Below are positions 34,823 through 48,250 of a stretch of 64,000 nucleotides of DNA, one piece after another. A program made the position numbers and the translations under genes. The stretch lies in assembly GCA_963924555.1 (NCBI GenBank), contig OZ004593.1, positions 3,902,480 through 3,966,479 of the forward strand, given 5' to 3'. The DNA is from Crambe crambe (Eukaryota; Porifera; Demospongiae; Poecilosclerida; Crambeidae). The notes below the pieces were generated by a model that did no database searches, was not told the origin of the DNA, and was given only the letters and a program-made list of their open reading frames with translations. Each line of letters opens with the position of its first letter. Within the stretch, counting starts at the first letter, position 1.

Positions 34823-34826
34823 CCGG
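34823..34826. other. Target-site duplication CCGG, left
   Basis: CCGG precedes the first base of the left terminal repeat; the same four bases follow the right repeat at 48247-48250. Joining the two flanks gives TGACACCGGCAGGAC, which fits the terminal repeat of the older element ending here. Confidence 0.8.
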
Positions 34827-34898
34827 TGTTGCAGTGATTTCTGTTTCCCCGGGTTGCGTGTTTCCCCGCACATATAACCCTAGGGAGGAATGTTTCCC
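34827..34898 (+). repeat. Left terminal inverted repeat (72 bp, perfect)
   Basis: Identical to the reverse complement of 48175-48246. It holds three copies of TGTTTCCCC (34842, 34859, 34891); a fourth lies just inside at 34947. These direct repeats near the tip could be transposase binding sites. Confidence 0.93.
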
Positions 34899-35988
34899 CG
34901 CACATTGAGCACTGAACTGCGAAGATTCATTGCCGGCAGTGGTAAGTGTTTCCCCGGGTAGAATGTTTCCATCGCGAATAGCTACGATCTGTATTATCTG
35001 CTAGTCTCTTGCAACGTAGCTAGTCAGTCGTTCCGTGTTGTAAGGGACATGACATGATAAACTAGCTAATTAACCAGCTAATAATAAGTATGAGCCACCC
35101 AACATGTGAAAGAACCAGCAGAGGAACATATTCACTTCCCTGATAAGGCCACACAAACACAAGACTTTCAGATTTCCATGAGGGAGGGAACCTGGTCACC
35201 ATTCGATATTGTACTTTGGATAATCAAATGAATAAAATGTACCAATTTTTCAAATTTTTGTCTGAAATGCCTCACTAAAAATTCAATATTTTGATGATGA
35301 GGGAGGTGACGATAAACTCTGCTCGGCCTAAGCGACATGTCCTGACTACTAAAGAAATTAGGGAACACCAAGTTCCCTCTACATCATATATAGCTAATAA
35401 TTATCTCAACTGTGTTTCATTTAGTTTATGTATGTATGTCCAGCAATAAGTATCATCAGTCAGGGTTAGCTATGTCCTTTCTTTATGCAACCCAATTTTA
35501 TTTTTTTCCCATATCAGTGCAGTATAATATTGGGGTGCCATTTGTATGTATCAAAACAAAGAAATAATAGGTGTCATTTAGCTAGTGCAGAAACCATTTT
35601 AATCGCTATAATGAGTTCAATAATCAGTGAAAAGCATAATAAGCTTGACTTTGAAGGAATTAATATAGCTATCCCTTTTCATACCTAAAATACTATAAGG
35701 ACAGGTGCTACTAATTCGGGGTGGTGGTATATACTAACTCAGGACATGTACATACATACGTATCTTATGGGGAATTTGGAGTCTATCTACAATTTCATAA
35801 CCTGAGAGTCAACTCACTCGCTCTGCTCGCTCGTATACGTAGCTATACAGATTATAGTGAGAAATAACACTGAAATTACATAAAACAAAATGTTAGCTAA
35901 AGGTGCTTAAACAAATTTGATTTTTGTATATTCTGTCCGCTTCAGTTCTTTTGATTTCAAATCGTTCTTTAATGAACTGGATCATTGC

Positions 35989-36835
35989 CTATACAACAGT
36001 AACTAATACTATACTATACACCAATTTCATAGTTATCACCTCTGGCCATAGTATGAATTGTGCTATATGAAGACCCGTGATATTGTTTATCTGCTGCACA
36101 TCGCACTGAAGTGCTTTAAGATAATGTTCCACTTCAAATCCCTAAAAAAATTAGAGATAGTAGAATAATTATTAGCTAGCTATAATTATTATGTACCAAG
36201 TCCACCAACTCTATAGGCCACTGAGATGCTATTTTTTTTCTCTGTGCACGTGTAGGATATGTAGTGTATGAACTTGAAACTCTTCCTTCTATGATTCCTC
36301 TCCACAATTCCTGTCAATTAGCACCATTATAGTTTTGTATTAAATTTTAAATCAAATAGCTACCTCATTTTCTTTGATCACCCTTCTCACAAATTCCCTT
36401 TTGAAGATACAGTGACTAATATTAATGAAAATATCAATGCTTTGCATACTACCATAAGATTACTCCCCTATTATACATACCTGTCTGAAGCAATAGGACC
36501 TTTTTTATCACGATAATACATTTTTGCTATATCCAGCCACCTGTCTTTTATGCTTCTTTTATCAAAAGTGAAAATATCATCACTATCATAATTTGTTTGG
36601 TCTTCTTGGAAGGATGGGAATAGGAAGTTTGCTGGCAATACTGAATCACTTAAATCTAATGATCAAAAGAGCTGAAAATCAGACTGATTATCATGATTAG
36701 CAAATTTAAGTTCATTTTTTTGCAAAGACAGATACATGTAGTCTATTGACTATGCTGAAATTACCATTAGCTTTTGATCCTGACTCCTTGTTGGATTCAC
36801 TTTGATTATCTGATTCACTTCTTTTGGAATCTGCT
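35989..36835 (-). CDS. Unrecognised C-terminal exons of the integrase-protease gene
   Basis: Downstream of the C48-like part, five more minus-strand exons with GT-AG borders can be read: about 36835-36769 (acidic-polar, KRSESDNQSESNKESGSKAN), 36655-36484 (VLPANFLFPSFQEDQTNYDS ... RSIKDRWLDIAKMYYRDKKG), 36417-36364 (IFKREFVRRVIKENE), 36310-36198 (LWRGIIEGRVSSSYTTYPTR) and 36145-35989 (FEVEHYLKALQCDVQQINNI), ending at a stop at 35989. No family is recognised. The content is charged and probably helical. It could be a DNA-binding or partner-binding tail or the remains of another captured gene. Confidence 0.5.
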
Positions 36836-36875
36836 TATAATTATGATAGTTTATTGCCTTATTTTAATTACATAC

Positions 36876-38066
36876 AGAATCTACACCATTTTCCTTGAAT
36901 TTGATGGGCATCAATTTCCCCTGTCTTAGCTCATTATTCATCACCCTCCTTAAGTGAGGTATGTCGGCCTATTAGCTACAACAATAAAAAATATTAGTAG
37001 CAAATTTTGACCATACCATACCTGGCTGAAGGAAGGAACTTCATCTATTACTATGAAGCGAGCAGCCTGTAAGTAAGATATTATTCAGTACAGGGGGAAG
37101 ATTATAGGGAGAGGGGGGAGGGGGACGTATAAATACAAAGTACATGGGTTGTTGCCTGAATCTGTGCAGGAATATGGTTTTGCACAACATTGCACTATTT
37201 TGTGTCAATCATTCAACTTAACATGCATATAAATACTCCACAGTCAGATGTATTAGTCTGTAATGGCATACATCCCATCTGTGCATGGTGAAACAGATTG
37301 ATAATAATCATAATTATAATAATCAAGTCATTTACTTCAGAATTCCACCTCTTCCACTCAGTCTGGTCCATTTCACCGATATGTCCAGACTCCTGACTCA
37401 ACTCACATAAAAAATACCTATAATAATTATGGCACTTTAGCTGCACGTGTCATTAATTTTCATGCTTATAGTCTTACCAAATATTATTTTCAATACTAGA
37501 ATTGGAAAGCTCTAGAGAAGAGTCCATGTAGATCATTTTTCTTTCCTTTGGTTTTATAACCTGTGTAATAATGATGATTAATGTTGTATAATGAATTTTA
37601 TTACTTACCACTAATATCCAGTGAGAACTGTGTATATTCCATGGAATTAAAATAATGTTGTTGTCAAAGCAATTTTTCTGGAAATTATAATATCTGACAT
37701 CAGAATTCAAATTCAATACAGCTACTCTTACCTCAGGGAAGTACTTCTTTGATTTTATATAACCATGCAACAAAAAAGAGGTACCAAAAAAGTATTTGCT
37801 GCTGCAACTTTGAGCTATTTATAATAGATATAAGAATAAGAGCAGTAGAGAGCTGCAGCTAGTCATCTCACCTTAGCATCAGAAGCACTCTCATCAACAA
37901 TAAGTGAAAAATATTTGTTGATAATCTACAAGCAAACGAGCCCTTTTATCATCATGCATGCATTTGATAATGCATTCACATTATTTACCACATCATCCAG
38001 CCATTCACTATCATTTAATCTCCATAAGCTTGATTCTAACAGCGAGTCACTGAAAGATGAAACAAT
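36876..38066 (-). CDS. Ulp1/SENP-like (C48) cysteine protease domain of the transposon
   Basis: Family knowledge: Ulp1/SENP proteases cut SUMO or related modifiers using a His-Asp-Gln-Cys site. Exons on the minus strand show the landmarks in order: LNDSEWLDDV (38066-38000 region) with IINKYFSLIVDESASDAK (37928-37875) for the WLND-VIN-Y start; NNIILIPWNIHSSHWILV (about 37670-37610) with the catalytic His in HW; KERKMIYMDSS (about 37560-37520) with the Asp; MPLQTNTSDCGVFICM (about 37265-37215) with the Gln and Cys; then FIVIDEVPSFSQ and IPHLRRVMNNELRQGKLMPI, the usual C-terminal end. Introns are about 50-130 bases. The whole domain is represented, with the signature residues visible, but the frame is not fully intact in this copy. 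It follows the C19-like part directly. Confidence 0.8.
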
Positions 38067-38455
38067 CTACAAAGATAACGAAAACACTCAGTTCTCCTGC
38101 GAAATGTGTTATCATTATTCAGAAACTTAGCTATTATTATGATCACTAGCTATACCTTCATTTCCTCCTCAATGCTGAAGTCCTATTAAATGATACGCAA
38201 TGATGATAAGTATAACTGCTACGTATACATTATGATTTACCTTTAATTCCATTTGTAAATTACTGACATCAGTTTTCAAAATATGTACCTGAATGTATGT
38301 TGTGTAGGTTGTAGAAAGTATTAAATCGTGGTAGCTATAGAGAGGTAATTCTTACTGATATTTGAGGAGTAGAGTAGAGAATGATTACAACATTCCTCTG
38401 CATAGAATTAATACTCATTATTGATTCATGAAATTAATGTGATTCTAGTGTATAC

Positions 38456-38670
38456 CTGAATATAAGTAGACTCAATAACACTACTTTCTACTTCTGAAAC
38501 TTGTACATCATTGAAGTGGATTAAAGTATCTTGCTGAGTCAGAGTGTAAGCAGTGTCTAAGAAATGAAAACTATCATAGTCTATAGGTAGCTTATTTGGT
38601 GAAAACTTACAATGTCCACTTTTTGTTGTGGTACCATGATGCAACTAAAAAAAACAACTATTTTCATAAT

Positions 38671-38737
<67 letters not shown>

Positions 38738-39840
38738 CACTATAAAACCTTGTAGGTCATATTGAATCTCGTGACCATTATCAAGCTTCACATTCATTTT
38801 CCTGGAATGCAGAAGAATAATAGGGTGGCAATACTATAATGGCATAGAGTTTCACCTTTGGATGGTGACTGGCCTGTTTGATCTTTTTGGGGGGCCTGAC
38901 CTCTTTCTGCCAAACAGTGTCCTTTTACAAGTGATAAAAATGTACTTAGGGGCATTTTTAAGTTTTGAGGTCACATATATTCCTCCTGGCTTGAAACAGT
39001 TCGTGCACCTTCTGTATCCAGAATATTATTACAGCCATAGTAGTTATAATTATAGATATTAATACCTGTCATTAGGTCCTTTGGTGACTCTTTCAAGGTC
39101 ATAATTTGTGGTAATCAGATCCTTTACTGCAATATCTTCACGAGATTTACCAAGAGAGCAATATAAAATATTATGTTCTTCCACTCCAACATCACTGAAC
39201 TGATAAGAAATAAACATGTATCATATGTAGCTAGGGCAAGAAATGACTTAGAATAGGTGAAACAGTCACAGTCATTATGAGTATACCTTTTTGGTTCCTC
39301 CATTATGGCAAGAAGTGCAATATGACTGACTTAAATATGAGAAGGTAAGGAGTGCATCTTCCTGCATAAAAATGAAATTGAGAGCTCCATAGTTTCATTA
39401 TTAATCTAGATAGTATCAGTGTGTTAAACTACTTACGTTAATACATTCTGTCAATTTGTTTATTAAGCACTGCAAACCTTCAGCAGCATCCTGTTGTGCA
39501 GAACCAACTAGGCTACTCTTGAGCATGGACTAGAAGAAAAATTATTGTTTAAGTAATAATGTAGAAAATTAATAACGATTTCAGATTTTGTACCTTTAAG
39601 CATAGAATATTCACTGATTGATGCATGTCCAATGACTTACAGATATCACAATACTCAACCTGCACTTCATTGGTGCTTCTCATACCTTTTGGTATCATAT
39701 TTTATAGCTAGTTACATCATGGTATTTGCAGAACGTACCATGGAGGAAGTGATGAATATTTGTTCCATTTATTAATAACTGTATGCATGATATCAACCAA
39801 CAACTGTTCTCTTTGTTGGTAATTCCACAGTATTTTTTCT
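38456..39840 (-). CDS. Ubiquitin-specific-protease-like (C19) domain of the transposon
   Basis: Minus-strand exons: 39840-39739 (LWNYQQREQLLVDIMHTVIN), about 39690-39595 (VEYCDICKSLDMHQS), 39529-39437 (SSLVGSAQQDAAEGLQCLIN), about 39362-39290 (YLSQSYCTSCHNGG), about 39205-39065, about 39030-38858 (RCTNCFKPGG), about 38800-38745 and 38644-38456. USP landmarks are the QQDA-E motif, two CxxC pairs forming the zinc ribbon (CTSC, CTNC), HHGTTTKSGH with a short intron inside the SGHYTAY box, and FNDVQVSEV with the last catalytic residue. The Cys box (GNTCY) was not recognised upstream; a proline-rich exon (40110-39900) stands there instead. Known USPs remove ubiquitin; whether this one could act is open. 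Confidence 0.75.
38674..38735. repeat. (GA)n microsatellite inside a short intron
   Basis: About 31 GA units lying between two C19-like exons; on the coding strand it is a (TC)n tract, and so may double as a polypyrimidine tract for the next acceptor. Confidence 0.95.
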
Positions 39841-39899
39841 GGTTGAGTTGGGAGTGAAGGTGGAGGAAGTTTATTAGTTAACCTTCACTTACCACATTG

Positions 39900-42090
<2,191 letters not shown>

Positions 42091-42599
42091 GTTTGAAGGA
42101 TAGATGAAAGCCAAATCAGAAGATAGATTTTTTCGTCCCACTAGCTATAGAACTTTACAATAAACTGACTACAACTAGAATGCTCCTATTTATATAAAAA
42201 TCACCAAGACAAGAAAAAACATGCACCGAGTGTAAAGACAAGAAAAGACATGCACAAAACCAAAACCACTACAAGGATTACATAGTGCACAAACAGCACA
42301 AATCAAGAAACAAGAAAAAACTTGTCCAAAGCTGGCCACACAGCAACTGTTGTTGTTGTTGTTGCTGTTGTTTTACTCAGTGGTGGGTGTGGTCACACAA
42401 GTAGGCGTGGTCGACCTTGCATATGGATTGAAACTGAGCATGCTCAGTCATAGTTACTCATGCATGCATGAGAGGGCCCTAGGGAAGAATGCTTATATGG
42501 GATGGTTACGGACACTTAAGAAATTAAAATTGAGAAAAATTAGACCTTATAATATACTTTTGCTTCAACATCAATTTCGTTCACTTCACCTTAGGTTTC

Positions 42600-45500
42600 T
42601 TTTAGTGAAGGAATAAGCAGGGGAAACACATATCCCTGATCAGTGATATGTGTTCCCCTGACATAAAATTTGCAGCAAAGATACAGATACCCTGATATTA
42701 TAGCTTATACCTCTTAGAAATAAGCAGGAAAATATATCCCTGATCAGAGCAAAGGGATTATACATCAGTATGTCAGGGGAACACATATCACTCCCTTCAT
42801 GAAACCTCGGGTAAGATTTACCTCATGTCAGGCAAGGGTATACACTGATCAGGAATAATGTCAGGGGAATGCATATGTTTCCCTTGCTAATTCCTTCACT
42901 AAATTCAAGTGAGGTATTTATTGCACATTCATGCTTTGAATAATATTATCATGACTTATTACATGGTGGCAATATTTCAAGAGGCCATAGGCTGAGTGGA
43001 ATATTATGCCCAACCAAGGGTAAGTAATAAATCTGATATTCAGCAAAATAATGATCAGGAATATAACTATGATCTCTTTGCTGCCAACTTCGTGTCAAGG
43101 GAATGCATATCACTAATCAGGGATATGTGTTTCCCCTGCTTATTTCTTCACTAAAAGAAACCTCAGGTGAAGTATAATTGATTTTACCTTATGTCAGGCA
43201 AGGGTACACTGATTAGGAATGTGTATTCCCTTTGCTGCAAATTTCATATCAGGGGAACACATATCACTGATCAGGGATATGTGTTTCCCCTGCTTATTTC
43301 TTCACTAAAAGAAACCTCAGGTGAAGTATAATTGATTTTACCTTATGTCAGGCAAGGGTACACTGATCAGGAATGTGTATTCCCTTTGCTGCAAATTTCA
43401 TATCAGGGGAACACATATCACTGATCAGGGATATGTGTTTCCCCTGCTTATTTCTTCACTAAAAGAAACCTCAGGTGAAGTATAATTGATTTTACCTTAT
43501 GTCAGGCAAGGGTACACTGATCAGGAATGTGTATTCCCTTTGCTGCAAATTTCATATCAGGGGAACGCATATCACTGATCAGGGATATGTGTTTCCCGCC
43601 CTGCTTATTTCTTTACTAAAAGAAACCTCAGGTGAAGTATAATTGATTTTACCTTATGTCAGGCAAGGGTACACTGATCAGGAATGTGTATTCCCTTTGC
43701 TGCAAATTTCATATCAGGGGAACGCATATCACTGATCAGGGATATCTGTTTCCCCTGCTTATTTCTTCACTAAAAGAAACCTCAGGTGAAGTATAATTGA
43801 TTTTACCTTATGTCAGGCAAGGGTACACTGATCAGGAATGTGTATTCCCTTTGCTGCAAATTTCATATCAGGGAAACGCATATCACTGATCAGGGATATC
43901 TGTTTCCCCTGCTTATTTCTTCACTAAAAGAAACCTCAGGTGAAGTATAATTGATTTTACCTTATGTCAGGCAAGGGTACACTGATCAGGAATGTGTATT
44001 CCCTTTGCTGCAAATTTCATATCAGGGGAACGCATATCACTGATCAGGGATATGTGTTTCCCGCCCTGCTTATTTCTTCACTAAAAGAAACCTCAGGTGA
44101 AGTATAATTGATTTTACCTTATGTCAGGCAAGGGTACACTGATCAGGAATGTGTATTCCCTTTGCTGCAAATTTCATATCAGGGGAACACATATCACTGA
44201 TCAGGGATATGTGTTTCCCCTGCTTATTTCTTCACTAAAAGAAACCTCAGGTGAAGTATAATTGATTTTACCTTATGTCAGGCAAGGGTACACTGATCAG
44301 GAATGTGTATTCCCTTTGCTGCAAATTTCATATCAGGGGAACGCATATCACTGATCAGGGATATGTGTTTCCCGCCCTGCTTATTTCTTTACTAAAAGAA
44401 ACCTCAGGTGAAGTATAATTGATTTTACCTTATGTCAGGCAAGGGTACACTGATCAGGAATGTGTATTCCCTTTGCTGCAAATTTCATATCAGGGGAACG
44501 CATATCACTGATCAGGGATATCTGTTTCCCCTGCTTATTTCTTCACTAAAAGAAACCTCAGGTGAAGTATAATTGATTTTACCTTATGTCAGGCAAGGGT
44601 ACACTGATCAGGAATGTGTATTCCCTTTGCTGCAAATTTCATATCAGGGAAACGCATATCACTGATCAGGGATATCTGTTTCCCCTGCTTATTTCTTCAC
44701 TAAAAGAAACCTCAGGTGAAGTATAATTGATTTTACCTTATGTCAGGCAAGGGTACACTGATTAGGAATGTGTATTCCCTTTGCTGCAAATTTCATATCA
44801 GGGGAACACATATCACTGATCAGGGATATGTGTTTCCCCTGCTTATTTCTTCACTAAAAGAAACCTCAGGTGAAGTATAATTGATTTTACCTTATGTCAG
44901 GCAAGGGTACACTGATCAGGAATGTGTATTCCCTTTGCTGCAAATTTCATATCAGGGGAACACATATCACTGATCAGGGATATGTGTTTCCCCTGCTTAT
45001 TTCTTCACTAAAAGAAACCTCAGGTGAAGTATAATTGATTTTACCTTATGTCAGGCAAGGGTACACTGATCAGGAATGTGTATTCCCTTTGCTGCAAATT
45101 TCATATCAGGGGAACGCATATCACTGATCAGGGATATGTGTTTCCCGCCCTGCTTATTTCTTCACTAAAAGAAACCTCAGGTGAAGTATAATTGATTTTA
45201 CCTTATGTCAGGCAAGGGTACACTGATCAGGAATGTGTATTCCCTTTGCTGCAAATTTCATATCAGGGGAACACATATCACTGATCAGGGATATCTGTTT
45301 CCCCTGCTTATTTCTTCACTAAAAGAAACCTCAGGTGAAGTATAATTGATTTTACCTTATGTCAGGCAAGGGTACACTGATCAGGAATGTGTATTCCCTT
45401 TGCTGCAAATTTCATATCAGGGGAACGCATATCACTGATCAGGGATATCTGTTTCCCCTGCTTATTTCTTCACTAAAAGAAACCTCAGGTGAAGTATAAT

Positions 45501-46390
45501 TGATTTTACCTTATGTCAGGCAAGGATACACTGATCAGGAATGTGTATTCCCTTTGCTGCAAATTTCATATCAGGGGAACGCATATCACTGATCAGGGAT
45601 ATCTGTTTCCCCTGCTTATTTCTTCACTAAAAGTAACCTCTGGTGAGGAATAATTTTTTACCTTACATGTCAGGGTATACTGATCAGGAATGTATAGTAT
45701 ATTCCCTTCACTGCAAATTTCATGTCAGGGGAACAAATATCACTGATCAGGGATATGTGTTCCCCCTGCTTATTCCTTCACTAAACGAAACCTTTGGTGA
45801 GGAATACGTAATTGATTTTTTACCTTACATATGTCGGGGTATACTGATCAGGAATGTATAATCTCTTTGCTGTATCATGGCCACATATCACTGATCAGGG
45901 ATATGTGTTTCCCCCGCTTATTCCTTCACTAAAAGAAACTCTGGTGAGGAATATTGCCTTACGCATGTCAGGGTATATTAATCAGGAATGTATAATCCTT
46001 TCGCTGGAAATTTCATGTCAGGGGAACGCATATCACTGATCAGGGATATGTGTTTCCCCTGCTTATTCCTTCACTAAAAGAACCTCAGGTAAGGTATAGA
46101 GTCTAATTGATTTTACCTTGTGTCAGGCAAGGGTACACTGATCAGGAATATGTATTCCCTTTGCTGCAACTTTCATATCAGGGGAATGCATATCACTGAT
46201 CAGGGATATGTGTTTCCCCTGCTTATTTCTTCACTAAAAGAAACCTCAGGTTAGGTATAATTGATGTCAGGCAAGGGTACAGAATGTGTATTCCCTTTGC
46301 TGCAAATTTCATATCAGGGGAACGCATATCACTGATCGGGGATATCTTTCCCCTGCTTATTTCTTCACTAAAAGTAGCTAACCTCTGGTG
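42600..46390. repeat. ~154-bp satellite array within the transposon
   Basis: Highly similar 154- or 157-base units run from about 43080 to 45620 (about 16), with more diverged units on both sides (42600-43080, 45620-46390) and a further block at 47290-47755. The 3-base length variant reads CCCGCCCTGC in place of CCCCTGC. Each unit contains a dyad CAGGGGAACACATATC - ACTGATCAGG - GATATGTGTTTCCCCTG. The core GTGTTTCCCC matches the TGTTTCCCC repeats of the terminal inverted repeats. The array is upstream of the integrase start. Higher-order repetition is visible: blocks of several units recur in the same variant order. Confidence 0.95.
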
Positions 46391-46741
46391 AGGTTTTTCC
46401 TTCTTTTTTTTAAACAGGTGTAAATTCAACTTCAGGATCAGAAGTTTTTTTTCTAGAACAAATAAATACCAAGAAGAAAGCTAGTGGAAAACAAAAACAA
46501 AAACGATAACATGACTGTAATAATAATAATAATGATAATAACGAGTTCTAGATACAAAAATGAGATGGGAATCCGGAAACGGAGAATCAATAATGAAATG
46601 CCAACAAAAAAACAAAAAAATAAACAAACAAACAAACAAAAAAACTATAATATGGTTAAAGTTAATAAGTCCCCAGCACAGCAGAAGCATTGCCTCTTTG
46701 TATCTCTATGGACAATCTCTGCACTAAATAAAAGTAAGACT

Positions 46742-47280
46742 TTATCTCCCCAGTGTTTTCCCTAATCCTTCTCCAAAGAATGACATGGCAGCTGAACCAA
46801 AGGATCCTGATGTCTCCACTGCCAACGGGACAAAGAGGTACTGATCTCCTAAGTTTGAATATTTGACCTTCTTCTTGTGTTCCGCTTCATTAGCCACATT
46901 TCGTGCTTCAAGCAGCCAGGCTGACGTGCAATATAGAAAAAGTGAAGTCCCATACCAAGGGCAAAGGGTGACTCCATCAGGTCTCTTTCCGTCACTTCTA
47001 CTGATTCCACTTGGTTCTAATTTAGATGGGATTTTTGCAGATGATAAAGATCTTTTTATCAAGGCATTGATGGAACTATGCCTCAAATGTGTCCCCTAAC
47101 TCTTTCTGCAGTGGCAAGGACATCTACAGGGGAACCACAGTGACTACAGAGATGAGGTAACAGGCCAACAGCAATTCTAATGGTGTCATCATCAAGTCTC
47201 AGTCCAAGACATGATACTGGCAACGCATGTAGCCATGCCCCAGACTCTTTTTTAGTAGCAGCTAGCAAGCGAGCCCTGAA
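46742..47280 (-). pseudogene. Retroelement-type C-terminal domain fragment inserted in the satellite
   Basis: On the minus strand 47268-47083 reads [20 protein letters not shown] followed by [20 protein letters not shown], and 47086-46742 reads NALIKRSLSSAKIPSKLEPS, SDGKRPDGVTLCPWYGTSLF, KKVKYSNLGDQYLFVPLAVE and TSGSFGSAAMSF. This W-H-LP-GLRLDD / KRPDG-T--PW / KY--L---Y-FVP-VET-G pattern is found downstream of reverse transcriptase in repeated animal elements and resembles a nuclease-type fold. It is incomplete and broken, and flanked on both sides by satellite units, so it jumped into the array. Confidence 0.6.
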
Positions 47281-47289
47281 TCACATGTC

Positions 47290-47755
47290 CAAAAAGGTGG
47301 TTTATGAATAATTGATTTTTTACCTTACATAATATATCAGGGTATACTGATCAGGAATGTATGATCCCTTTGCTGCAAATTTCATGTCAGGGGAACACAT
47401 ATCACTGATCAGGGGTATGTGTTTCCCCTGCTTATTTCTTCACAAAAAGAAATATCAGGTCATTATAGCTAATTGATTTTATCTTATGTCAGGCAAGGGT
47501 ACACTGATCAGGAATGTGTATTCCTTTTGCTGCAAATTTTATGTAAGGGGAACAATATCACTGATCAGGGATATATGTTTCCCCTGCTTATTCCTTCAAT
47601 AAAAGAAACCTCTAGTGAGGAATATTACCTTACATATATCAGGGTATATTGATCAGGAATGTATAATCCCTTTGCTGCAAATTTCATGTCAGGGGAATGC
47701 ATATCACTGATCAGGAATATGTGTTTCCCCTGCTTATTCCTTCACTAAAAGTGTA
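47290..47755. repeat. Outer block of the 154-bp satellite
   Basis: Three diverged units of the same satellite (TATCACTGATCAGGGGTATG, TGTGTTTCCCCTGCTTATT) resume immediately after the inserted retroelement fragment. Confidence 0.9.
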
Positions 47756-48174
47756 CATAATCTTATAATCAACAATTACTATAGCTAGTTATGATCTCTG
47801 GCCACAGTAGGAACTGTGCTGTAAGAAGACTGGTTATTCTAGTCTCCATCACTTCAAGTACGTTGCATTTCTTATTTGGAGACCAATTGCTCTTGAGTAC
47901 CTGGTTCTATAATCCTGCATTATCACTCCTTGATAAAAAATTAATGTGTCTGGACTAGATGCAGCTATAGATACCTGAGATGACAGCAGTCATAGGCCAA
48001 TTGCTATGGACAACAATCGCAGGACCAAATATTAAACATGACTGGTTACATGATACCTGTCAGAGAGAAAACTGCAACTAAAAAGCTGGCTAGGAGCTCT
48101 GATGCAGCGCCGCAAGCAAGAACCAAGGAAACATCCAGCCCTGGAAACTTTGTGATGACCTTTGACCCCCCGTT

Positions 48175-48246
48175 GGGAAACATTCCTCCCTAGGGTTATA
48201 TGTGCGGGGAAACACGCAACCCGGGGAAACAGAAATCACTGCAACA
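48175..48246 (-). repeat. Right terminal inverted repeat (72 bp, perfect)
   Basis: Reverse complement identical to 34827-34898, ending in CAGAAATCACTGCAACA, followed by CCGG (48247-48250). Confidence 0.93.
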
Positions 48247-48250
48247 CCGG

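What the first reader, a model, noticed from the sequence alone, without database searches (positions are those of the whole stretch)
34827..48246. 13.4-kb cut-and-paste element joining a Ginger-like integrase to both a USP-like and a Ulp1-like protease domain
Seen: perfect terminal repeats, CCGG duplication, and on one strand HHCC/DDE integrase, GPY/F-like module, C19-like landmarks (QQDA-E, two CxxC, SGH box, FND) and C48-like landmarks (WLDDV, HW, D, TSDCG). Known: Ginger elements can carry a single cysteine protease (Ulp1 or OTU). Inference: a ubiquitin-type plus SUMO-type protease pair in one transposon gene is new to me and could protect the transposase or loosen chromatin at targets.
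Basis: partly seen in the sequence, partly recalled or inferred. Interest (0 to 1): 0.92.

Follow-up and report, generated by a model that had tools for sequence, protein, structure and literature searches.

The report
Transposon carrying two tag-removing proteases
A large jumping gene in this genome encodes, next to its DNA-moving enzyme, two different protein-cutting domains of the kinds that strip ubiquitin and SUMO tags, and the same pairing recurs in several diverged jumping-gene families of the same genome, which suggests that both tags matter for transposition.

Summary
Window 34827-48246 is a cut-and-paste element with 72-bp perfect terminal repeats and CCGG flanks; 13 end pairs exist in the genome, with identical four-base flanks in 10 of 13 and an uninterrupted target for one insertion. 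The minus strand carries a computed 32-exon, 1,245-codon gene: Gypsy-type integrase, proline-rich linker, USP domain (PF00443, 61.1 bits, cut-off 23.9), Ulp1 domain (PF02902, 66.9 bits, cut-off 20.7) and a further C-terminal part. The window copy itself is broken in its integrase and Ulp1 parts. Three diverged families in the same genome also hold integrase, USP and Ulp1 in that order, in 4 of 5 loci fetched. A sister element shows only a weak C48-like match. Chance is excluded; a separate host gene or idle passenger is disfavoured. Ginger1 elements in print carry OTU or Ulp1, 'but not both', and no USP. I call it a new architectural variant of Ginger1. Its function (removing SUMO and ubiquitin from transposase or chromatin) is inferred; no RNA or biochemistry was available.

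The parts
34823..34826 (.). target-site duplication CCGG, left
34827..34898 (+). left terminal inverted repeat, 72 bp perfect, begins TGTTG; holds three TGTTTCCC motifs
35893..36830 (-). exons E27-E32: conserved C-terminal part after Ulp1 (weak RTC4-like match below cut-off), stop codon at the end
36887..38066 (-). exons E18-E26: Ulp1 (Peptidase_C48) domain; WLDDV, HW, MDS, PLQ, SDCG present; exon 20 frameshifted and exon 24 donor lost in this copy
38156..38288 (-). exons E16-E17: short linker between USP and Ulp1
38356..39838 (-). exons E7-E15: USP (UCH, peptidase C19) domain; Cys box NKENSCW, QQDAAE, two CxxC, SGH, FND
39893..40101 (-). exon E6: proline-rich linker between integrase and USP (junction E5-E6 is the least certain of the model)
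40226..42090 (-). exons E1-E5: integrase/transposase (H2C2 zinc finger, DDE core, GPY/F-like end); frameshifted in this copy in E1 and E2
43076..46374 (.). 154-bp minisatellite, 21.5 copies, about one TGTTTCCC motif (the motif of the terminal repeats) per unit; unit number differs between copies
48175..48246 (-). right terminal inverted repeat, 72 bp perfect
48247..48250 (.). target-site duplication CCGG, right

Best explanation
It is a cut-and-paste DNA transposon of the Ginger1 kind whose transposase gene encodes, after a Gypsy-type integrase, a ubiquitin-specific-protease domain and then a Ulp1/SENP-type SUMO-protease domain, plus a C-terminal part of unknown fold. Shown by sequence: the ends, the four-base target duplication, an uninterrupted target, the domains with their active-site residues, fewer protein-changing than silent changes in all three modules, and recurrence in diverged families. 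Inferred: that the parts are one protein; that the integrase binds the terminal repeats (and perhaps the internal array that repeats their TGTTTCCC motif), excises the element and reinserts it at mostly CGG-containing sites; and that the two hydrolases remove SUMO and ubiquitin from the transposase-DNA complex or from proteins at donor and target chromatin, keeping the complex from SUMO-targeted ubiquitylation and silencing. The window copy is disabled in integrase and Ulp1 and was probably moved in trans.
For: 72-bp perfect repeats and CCGG; 34 ends, 13 pairs, against 0 for the pattern read backwards; identical four-base flanks in 10 of 13; the joined 94-nt flank of copy C18a occurs uninterrupted at 40 scored places, 14 of them 100% identical. 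Pfam: Integrase_H2C2, rve, UCH, Peptidase_C48 above cut-off; Ulp1 part matches SENP1, E 2.5e-23. Gene model: 32 exons, commonest exon lengths sum to 3,738 bases in frame; 549 of 558 splice dinucleotides canonical in 9 aligned copies. dN/dS (rates per site) against copy C6: integrase 0.29-0.36, USP 0.31-0.40, Ulp1 0.22-0.26. Families B, C, D: integrase, USP, Ulp1 in order in 4 of 5 loci, UCH and C48 above cut-off in all three families. Window and C14a share integrase lesions but lie at different sites.
Against: No transcript: exon borders and the single-protein reading are computed by hand, and the E5-E6 junction has a weak acceptor. Each of the nine aligned copies carries at least one defect in the model. 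The USP part finds only USP35 at E 0.018 in the PDB by sequence. The dN/dS values all rest on one decayed copy, C6, so the four comparisons are not independent; between close copies there are too few changes and ratios scatter from 0 to 0.83 or are undefined. Three of 13 flanks differ in the first base. Length and intron number lie outside the published Ginger1 table, and no integrase tree was made. One of the five diverged loci (L045) shows no Ulp1 match in the stretch held. Some USP or Ulp1 matches in the genome stand alone.
Confidence: 0.72

Rival explanations
1. The element carries two genes: an integrase gene ending near 40150 and a separate USP-Ulp1 protease gene starting near the proline-rich stretch. 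The proteases act in trans, not fused to the transposase.
For: An in-frame stop follows the GPY/F stretch and the E5-E6 splice is weak; in family D a stop also ends the long integrase frame before the USP exons.
Against: With a GT-AG intron at E5-E6 the whole 32-exon reading stays in frame, 3,738 bases; the Met codon that could start a second gene reads Leu in copy C6; integrase, USP and Ulp1 keep order and strand in four of five diverged loci; published Ginger1 proteases are C-terminal parts of the transposase.
Confidence: 0.25
2. Only one protease matters; the other is a decaying passenger captured from the host.
For: Published Ginger1 elements have a single OTU or Ulp1 domain, and a sister element here (L048) has only a weak C48-like match.
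Against: Both domains have low dN/dS against C6 and score in Pfam in four families; USP Cys and His boxes are seen in A, B, C and D, and Ulp1 HW and DCG too, though I did not find the Ulp1 Asp stretch in family C.
Confidence: 0.07
3. Host protease gene or nested insertion that merely lies inside the terminal repeats.
For: A minisatellite and a retroelement-like frame (recalled likeness) suggest that the element can collect other DNA.
Against: The protease exons are in 11 of 13 end pairs (the two C15 copies are internal deletions) and recur behind integrases in diverged families.
Confidence: 0.03
4. A Gypsy LTR retrotransposon or Polinton remnant rather than a DNA transposon.
For: The integrase is of Gypsy type and the ends begin TGT.
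Against: Inverted terminal repeats, and no reverse transcriptase, RNase H, gag, polymerase or capsid match in the gene pieces and 11 other reading frames scanned; not every frame of the element was scanned.
Confidence: 0.02

Closest known systems
Ginger1 DNA transposons (Bao, Kapitonov and Jurka 2010, PMC2836005; parts 1 and 2 of 5 of the text and found passages seen)
   Same: TGTNR ends, TIR of 40-270 bp, four-base CCGG/CCGT-type duplication, H2C2 finger, DDE core, GPY/F, protease C-terminal to the integrase
   Different: Published ones have OTU or Ulp1 but not both, and no USP; 2.6-7 kb and 0-4 introns, against 13.4 kb here (4.0-14.5 kb between ends in other pairs) and 31 modelled introns
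Trichomonas protein XP_001314237.1 (transposase_11 with peptidase C19), named in the discussion of PMC2836005
   Same: a C19 domain next to a transposase domain
   Different: another transposase family, a protist; no Ulp1 domain is mentioned
Mutator elements with Ulp1 and Helitrons with OTU (PMC2836005)
   Same: a SUMO- or ubiquitin-type protease carried by a transposon
   Different: other transposases; one protease type each as described there
SENP1/SENP2 and USP enzymes of hosts
   Same: domain families and active-site residues by sequence
   Different: not fused to an integrase and not mobile (recalled)

Membership tests
Ginger1 | four-base CCGG or CCGT/ACGG target duplication | tested here: met
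   10 of 13 end pairs have identical four-base flanks; 6 of the 10 are CCGG (3, two of them probably one duplicated insertion), ACGG (2) or CCGT (1); the other 4 are CCGC (2), GCGG and CCCC
Ginger1 | ends TGTNR and TIR of 40-270 bp | tested here: met
   TGTTG, 72 bp perfect
Ginger1 | H2C2 finger and DDE core of Gypsy type | tested here: met
   PF17921 56.9 bits, PF00665 45.3 bits, letters of copy C10a
Ginger1 | GPY/F motif | tested here: met
   LGPYKIS in exon E5, read by eye
Ginger1 | YPYY motif before the zinc finger | tested here: inconclusive
   KYPLGY...NF...LFYI may fit by eye; no model was available
Ginger1 | C-terminal OTU or Ulp1, not both | tested here: met
   Ulp1 present, no OTU match; the USP domain is an addition that the published description does not hold
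Ginger1 | length 2.6-7 kb, 0-4 introns (descriptive range) | tested here: not met
   13.4 kb, 31 modelled introns; a range in a table, not stated as defining
Ginger1 | grouping with Ginger1 in an integrase tree | not tested
   no reference Ginger1 sequences at hand
Peptidase C19 (USP/UCH) | Cys box, Gln box, His box, Asp/Asn, zinc CxxC pairs | tested here: met
   PF00443 over 1-246 of 254; NSC, QQDA, SGH, FND, two CxxC; the list of landmarks is recalled
Peptidase C48 (Ulp1/SENP) | His, Asp, Gln, Cys catalytic set | tested here: met
   PF02902 66.9 bits; HW, MDS, PLQ, SDCG; SENP1 alignment; exon 20 read from other copies; the set is recalled
Peptidase C19 and C48 | hydrolysis of ubiquitin or SUMO | not testable with these tools
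   needs purified protein

The most novel reading that the evidence does not exclude
A deep lineage of DNA transposons carries a dual eraser fused to its transposase, one enzyme for SUMO and one for ubiquitin, so that both layers of SUMO-targeted ubiquitylation can be stripped from the transpososome or from silenced donor and target chromatin; an internal minisatellite of terminal-repeat motifs adds binding sites for the same protein.
Probability: 0.35. Interest if true: 0.82.

Novelty: new variant of a known kind. Interest (0 to 1): 0.64.

Why it matters
Why transposons carry ubiquitin- or SUMO-type proteases is open: Bao et al. proposed in general terms that these pathways take part in transposition or its repair. 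An element that keeps one protease for each tag, beside a sister element without a detectable USP, makes the question testable by mutating each active site alone and together. It may also offer a natural dual ubiquitin/SUMO hydrolase.

Tried and rejected
Chance resemblance was rejected by HMM scores. A separate host gene was disfavoured by copy mapping. Retroelement or Polinton origin was disfavoured for lack of RT or polymerase matches and by the inverted repeats. A second-gene start at a Met codon near 40120 was considered; it reads Leu in copy C6, but two genes cannot be excluded. Relatives in viral contigs: 2 scans, 6 and 5 stretches matched a pattern, none confirmed. Structure prediction was not attempted: the spliced proteins are not letter-for-letter readings of the DNA, which the tool asks for. 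The scripts failed (file name, time limit); one search did the work. My first gene model had wrong ends for exons 5, 7 and 26 and missed exons 27-32; it was replaced. The C48 query still carries a short tail from that first model. Copies C5 and C11a (insertions) and the partial copies C9b and C11c were left out of the nine-copy alignment; C15a and C15b lack the gene. For C11c I fetched the wrong side of the locus.
Full report
What is there. The window lies in contig C16 of an unnamed 143-Mb genome in 119 contigs. Positions 34827-48246 are bounded by 72-bp perfect inverted repeats beginning TGTTG and by CCGG on each side. A 27-base pattern of the end, with up to 3 mismatches, is found at 34 places and its reversed control at none; by position I group these into 13 pairs, the window included, and 8 single ends. 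The four-base flanks are identical in 10 of 13 pairs (CCGG three times, ACGG twice, CCGC twice, CCGT, GCGG, CCCC) and differ in the first base in the other 3; two of the CCGG pairs, C15a and C15b, share their flanks and are probably one duplicated insertion. Copies C18a and C9a sit at the same point of a repeated sequence, in opposite orientation. The joined 94-nt flank with a single ACGG occurs uninterrupted elsewhere: 40 places scored of 97 candidates, 14 of them 100% identical and 26 at 99%. This is what a DNA transposon that makes a four-base duplication leaves.

The gene. All coding landmarks lie on the minus strand. I built a splice model by hand from the three-frame display and checked it against eight other copies. 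It has 32 exons from 42090 to 35893. With the commonest exon lengths it totals 3,738 bases, an exact multiple of three, 1,245 codons plus stop. Of 558 splice dinucleotides in nine copies 549 are canonical. Since the model was drawn with GT-AG in view, the agreement of the other copies and the closed frame are the evidence, not the dinucleotides of the window. Order: integrase (E1-E5), proline-rich linker (E6), USP (E7-E15), short linker (E16-E17), Ulp1 (E18-E26), C-terminal part (E27-E32). The E5-E6 junction is the weakest point. No RNA was available.

Domains. Pfam gives Integrase_H2C2 E 2.2e-15, rve 1.1e-11, UCH 1.6e-16 over 1-246 of 254 profile positions, Peptidase_C48 2.9e-18, all above the curated cut-offs. 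The Ulp1 part aligns with SENP1 over 203 residues, E 2.5e-23; the USP part finds only USP35 at E 0.018, so it is a diverged USP. Catalytic positions are kept: NSC, SGH and FND for the USP; HW, MDS, PLQ and SDCG for Ulp1 (one copy, C8a, reads SDCE). The C-terminal part has only a sub-threshold RTC4 match (E 0.014).

State of the copies. Divergence over the aligned gene region between the window and seven close copies is 0.53-0.86%, and 4.89% to C6, so the family has moved recently. Yet each of the nine aligned copies has at least one defect in the model, many of them private. The window copy is frameshifted in exons 1, 2 and 20 and has lost the splice donor after exon 24. Copy C14a shares the lesions in exons 1, 2 and 20 (C18a that in exon 20) but lies at another site; so a copy with a broken integrase was probably moved, which implies help in trans. 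Gene conversion between copies could also give this and was not tested. Against copy C6, dN/dS is 0.29-0.36 (integrase), 0.31-0.40 (USP), 0.22-0.26 (Ulp1 with its linker, E16-E26) and 0.42-0.64 (E6 linker), four comparisons each that all share C6. dN is 0.014-0.031 in the three modules, against an intron distance of 0.051 (C8a-C6). Five comparisons between close copies have few changes; ratios scatter from 0 to 0.83 or are undefined. C6 is itself decayed, which inflates dN.

Recurrence. A protein search of the genome shows 14 close loci with both USP and Ulp1 matches, and further loci, mostly at 45-60% identity, where the two again lie a few kilobases apart: C1 5.06 Mb, C3 3.86, C6 2.56, C14 2.67, C8 3.38, C6 4.58, C5 7.08, C13 2.26, C18 3.95. 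Loci with a listed USP match but no Ulp1 match nearby are C10 3.11, C19 2.70, C9 4.37 and three in C3 (2.25, 2.52, 3.02); Ulp1 matches without a listed USP match nearby are C9 5.01 and C3 3.03 and 3.04. The USP list was cut by the tool. I fetched five diverged loci: integrase, USP and Ulp1 in that order in L043 and L044 (family B), L046 (family D) and L047 (family C); L045 (family C) shows integrase and USP but no Ulp1 match in the stretch held. Joined exon pieces score for UCH and C48 above cut-off in B, C and D, and rve scores in C and D; B's integrase was not scanned in Pfam. USP Cys and His boxes are seen in B, C and D; of the Ulp1 set I did not find the Asp stretch in C. The C-terminal part also lies next to several of these loci, and weaker matches to its first half occur at other places. 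The integrase of D is only about 24% identical to the window family, so the pairing is old or has been exchanged between integrase lineages. A sister element, L048, with integrase 59% and 48% identical in two stretches, shows downstream only a weak C48-like match, 19.4 bits against a cut-off of 20.7, and no USP match better than E 0.74 in the 3 kb held.

Internal array. Between 43076 and 46374 there is a 154-bp minisatellite of 21.5 copies. The motif TGTTTCCC, three times in each terminal repeat, occurs 24 times on the + strand and once on the - strand in 42400-47800, never in 35900-42100 and once in each flank of the window. As the units copy one another, this may be one coincidence multiplied; no shuffled control was run. 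I propose, without test, that these are extra binding sites for the transposase.

Comparison with what is known. Bao et al. 2010 (PMC2836005; parts 1 and 2 of 5 and found passages seen) describe Ginger1: CCGG or CCGT duplications, TGTNR ends, Gypsy-type integrase with GPY/F, and at the C-terminus OTU or Ulp1, 'but not both'; no USP in their table. Their discussion names one C19 domain, beside a transposase_11 domain in Trichomonas, and suggests a role of these pathways in transposition and repair. A 2026 paper on a Ginger1-derived crustacean gene (PMC12863088) holds none of the words ubiquitin, Ulp1, OTU, protease or peptidase in its main text (term search only). Searches for a USP- or C19-bearing Ginger element in the held library gave none by title and abstract start (in only 20 of 26 and 20 of 36 papers were listed). 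Repbase, preprint-only work and most subscription journals are not covered, so absence from print is not shown.

Mechanism. Shown: transposon anatomy and two protease domains with low dN/dS behind an integrase. Inferred: cut and paste by the integrase; removal of SUMO and ubiquitin from the transposase complex or from donor and target chromatin. SUMO takes part in small-RNA-directed silencing in worms (title and abstract start listed, PMC8131101), and SUMO-targeted ubiquitin ligases join the two tags (abstract start listed, PMC10444366). A transposase with both erasers could escape that sequence; this is a hypothesis.

Verdict. I file it as a new architectural variant of a known transposon group, with a clear experimental test.

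Noticed in passing
window 46745-47280 (-): Reading frames that resemble, from memory only, the end of a retroelement protein common in invertebrate genomes; no Pfam match. C5 and C6 seem to lack the stretch by the blastn mapping.
   Followed up: partly
window 47772-47906 (-): A short frame (AQFLLWPEIIT) like the C-terminal exon E31 (AQFILWPEVIT), at the 5' side of the element: perhaps a relic of a second copy of that part.
   Followed up: no
window 43076-46374: 154-bp minisatellite whose units repeat the TGTTTCCC motif of the terminal repeats; unit number differs between copies.
   Followed up: partly
copies C18a (L011-L012), C9a (L013-L014), C6 (L029-L030): Insertions at the same point of a sequence found at 40 or more places in the genome; C6 shares the left flank and only the first bases of the right one.
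   Followed up: partly
L025 and L026: Two internally deleted copies (4.7 and 4.0 kb) with nearly the same flanks, about 220 kb apart on contig C15: probably one insertion later duplicated.
   Followed up: no
L048:1071-1706 and 2506-2940: Sister Ginger-like element with a C48-like frame below cut-off, and a second integrase-like fragment downstream.
   Followed up: partly
G000 contig C8, 3.270-3.288 Mb: Two copies of the element lie almost end to end (protein matches 3.270-3.275 Mb, then the full copy 3276748-3288266).
   Followed up: no
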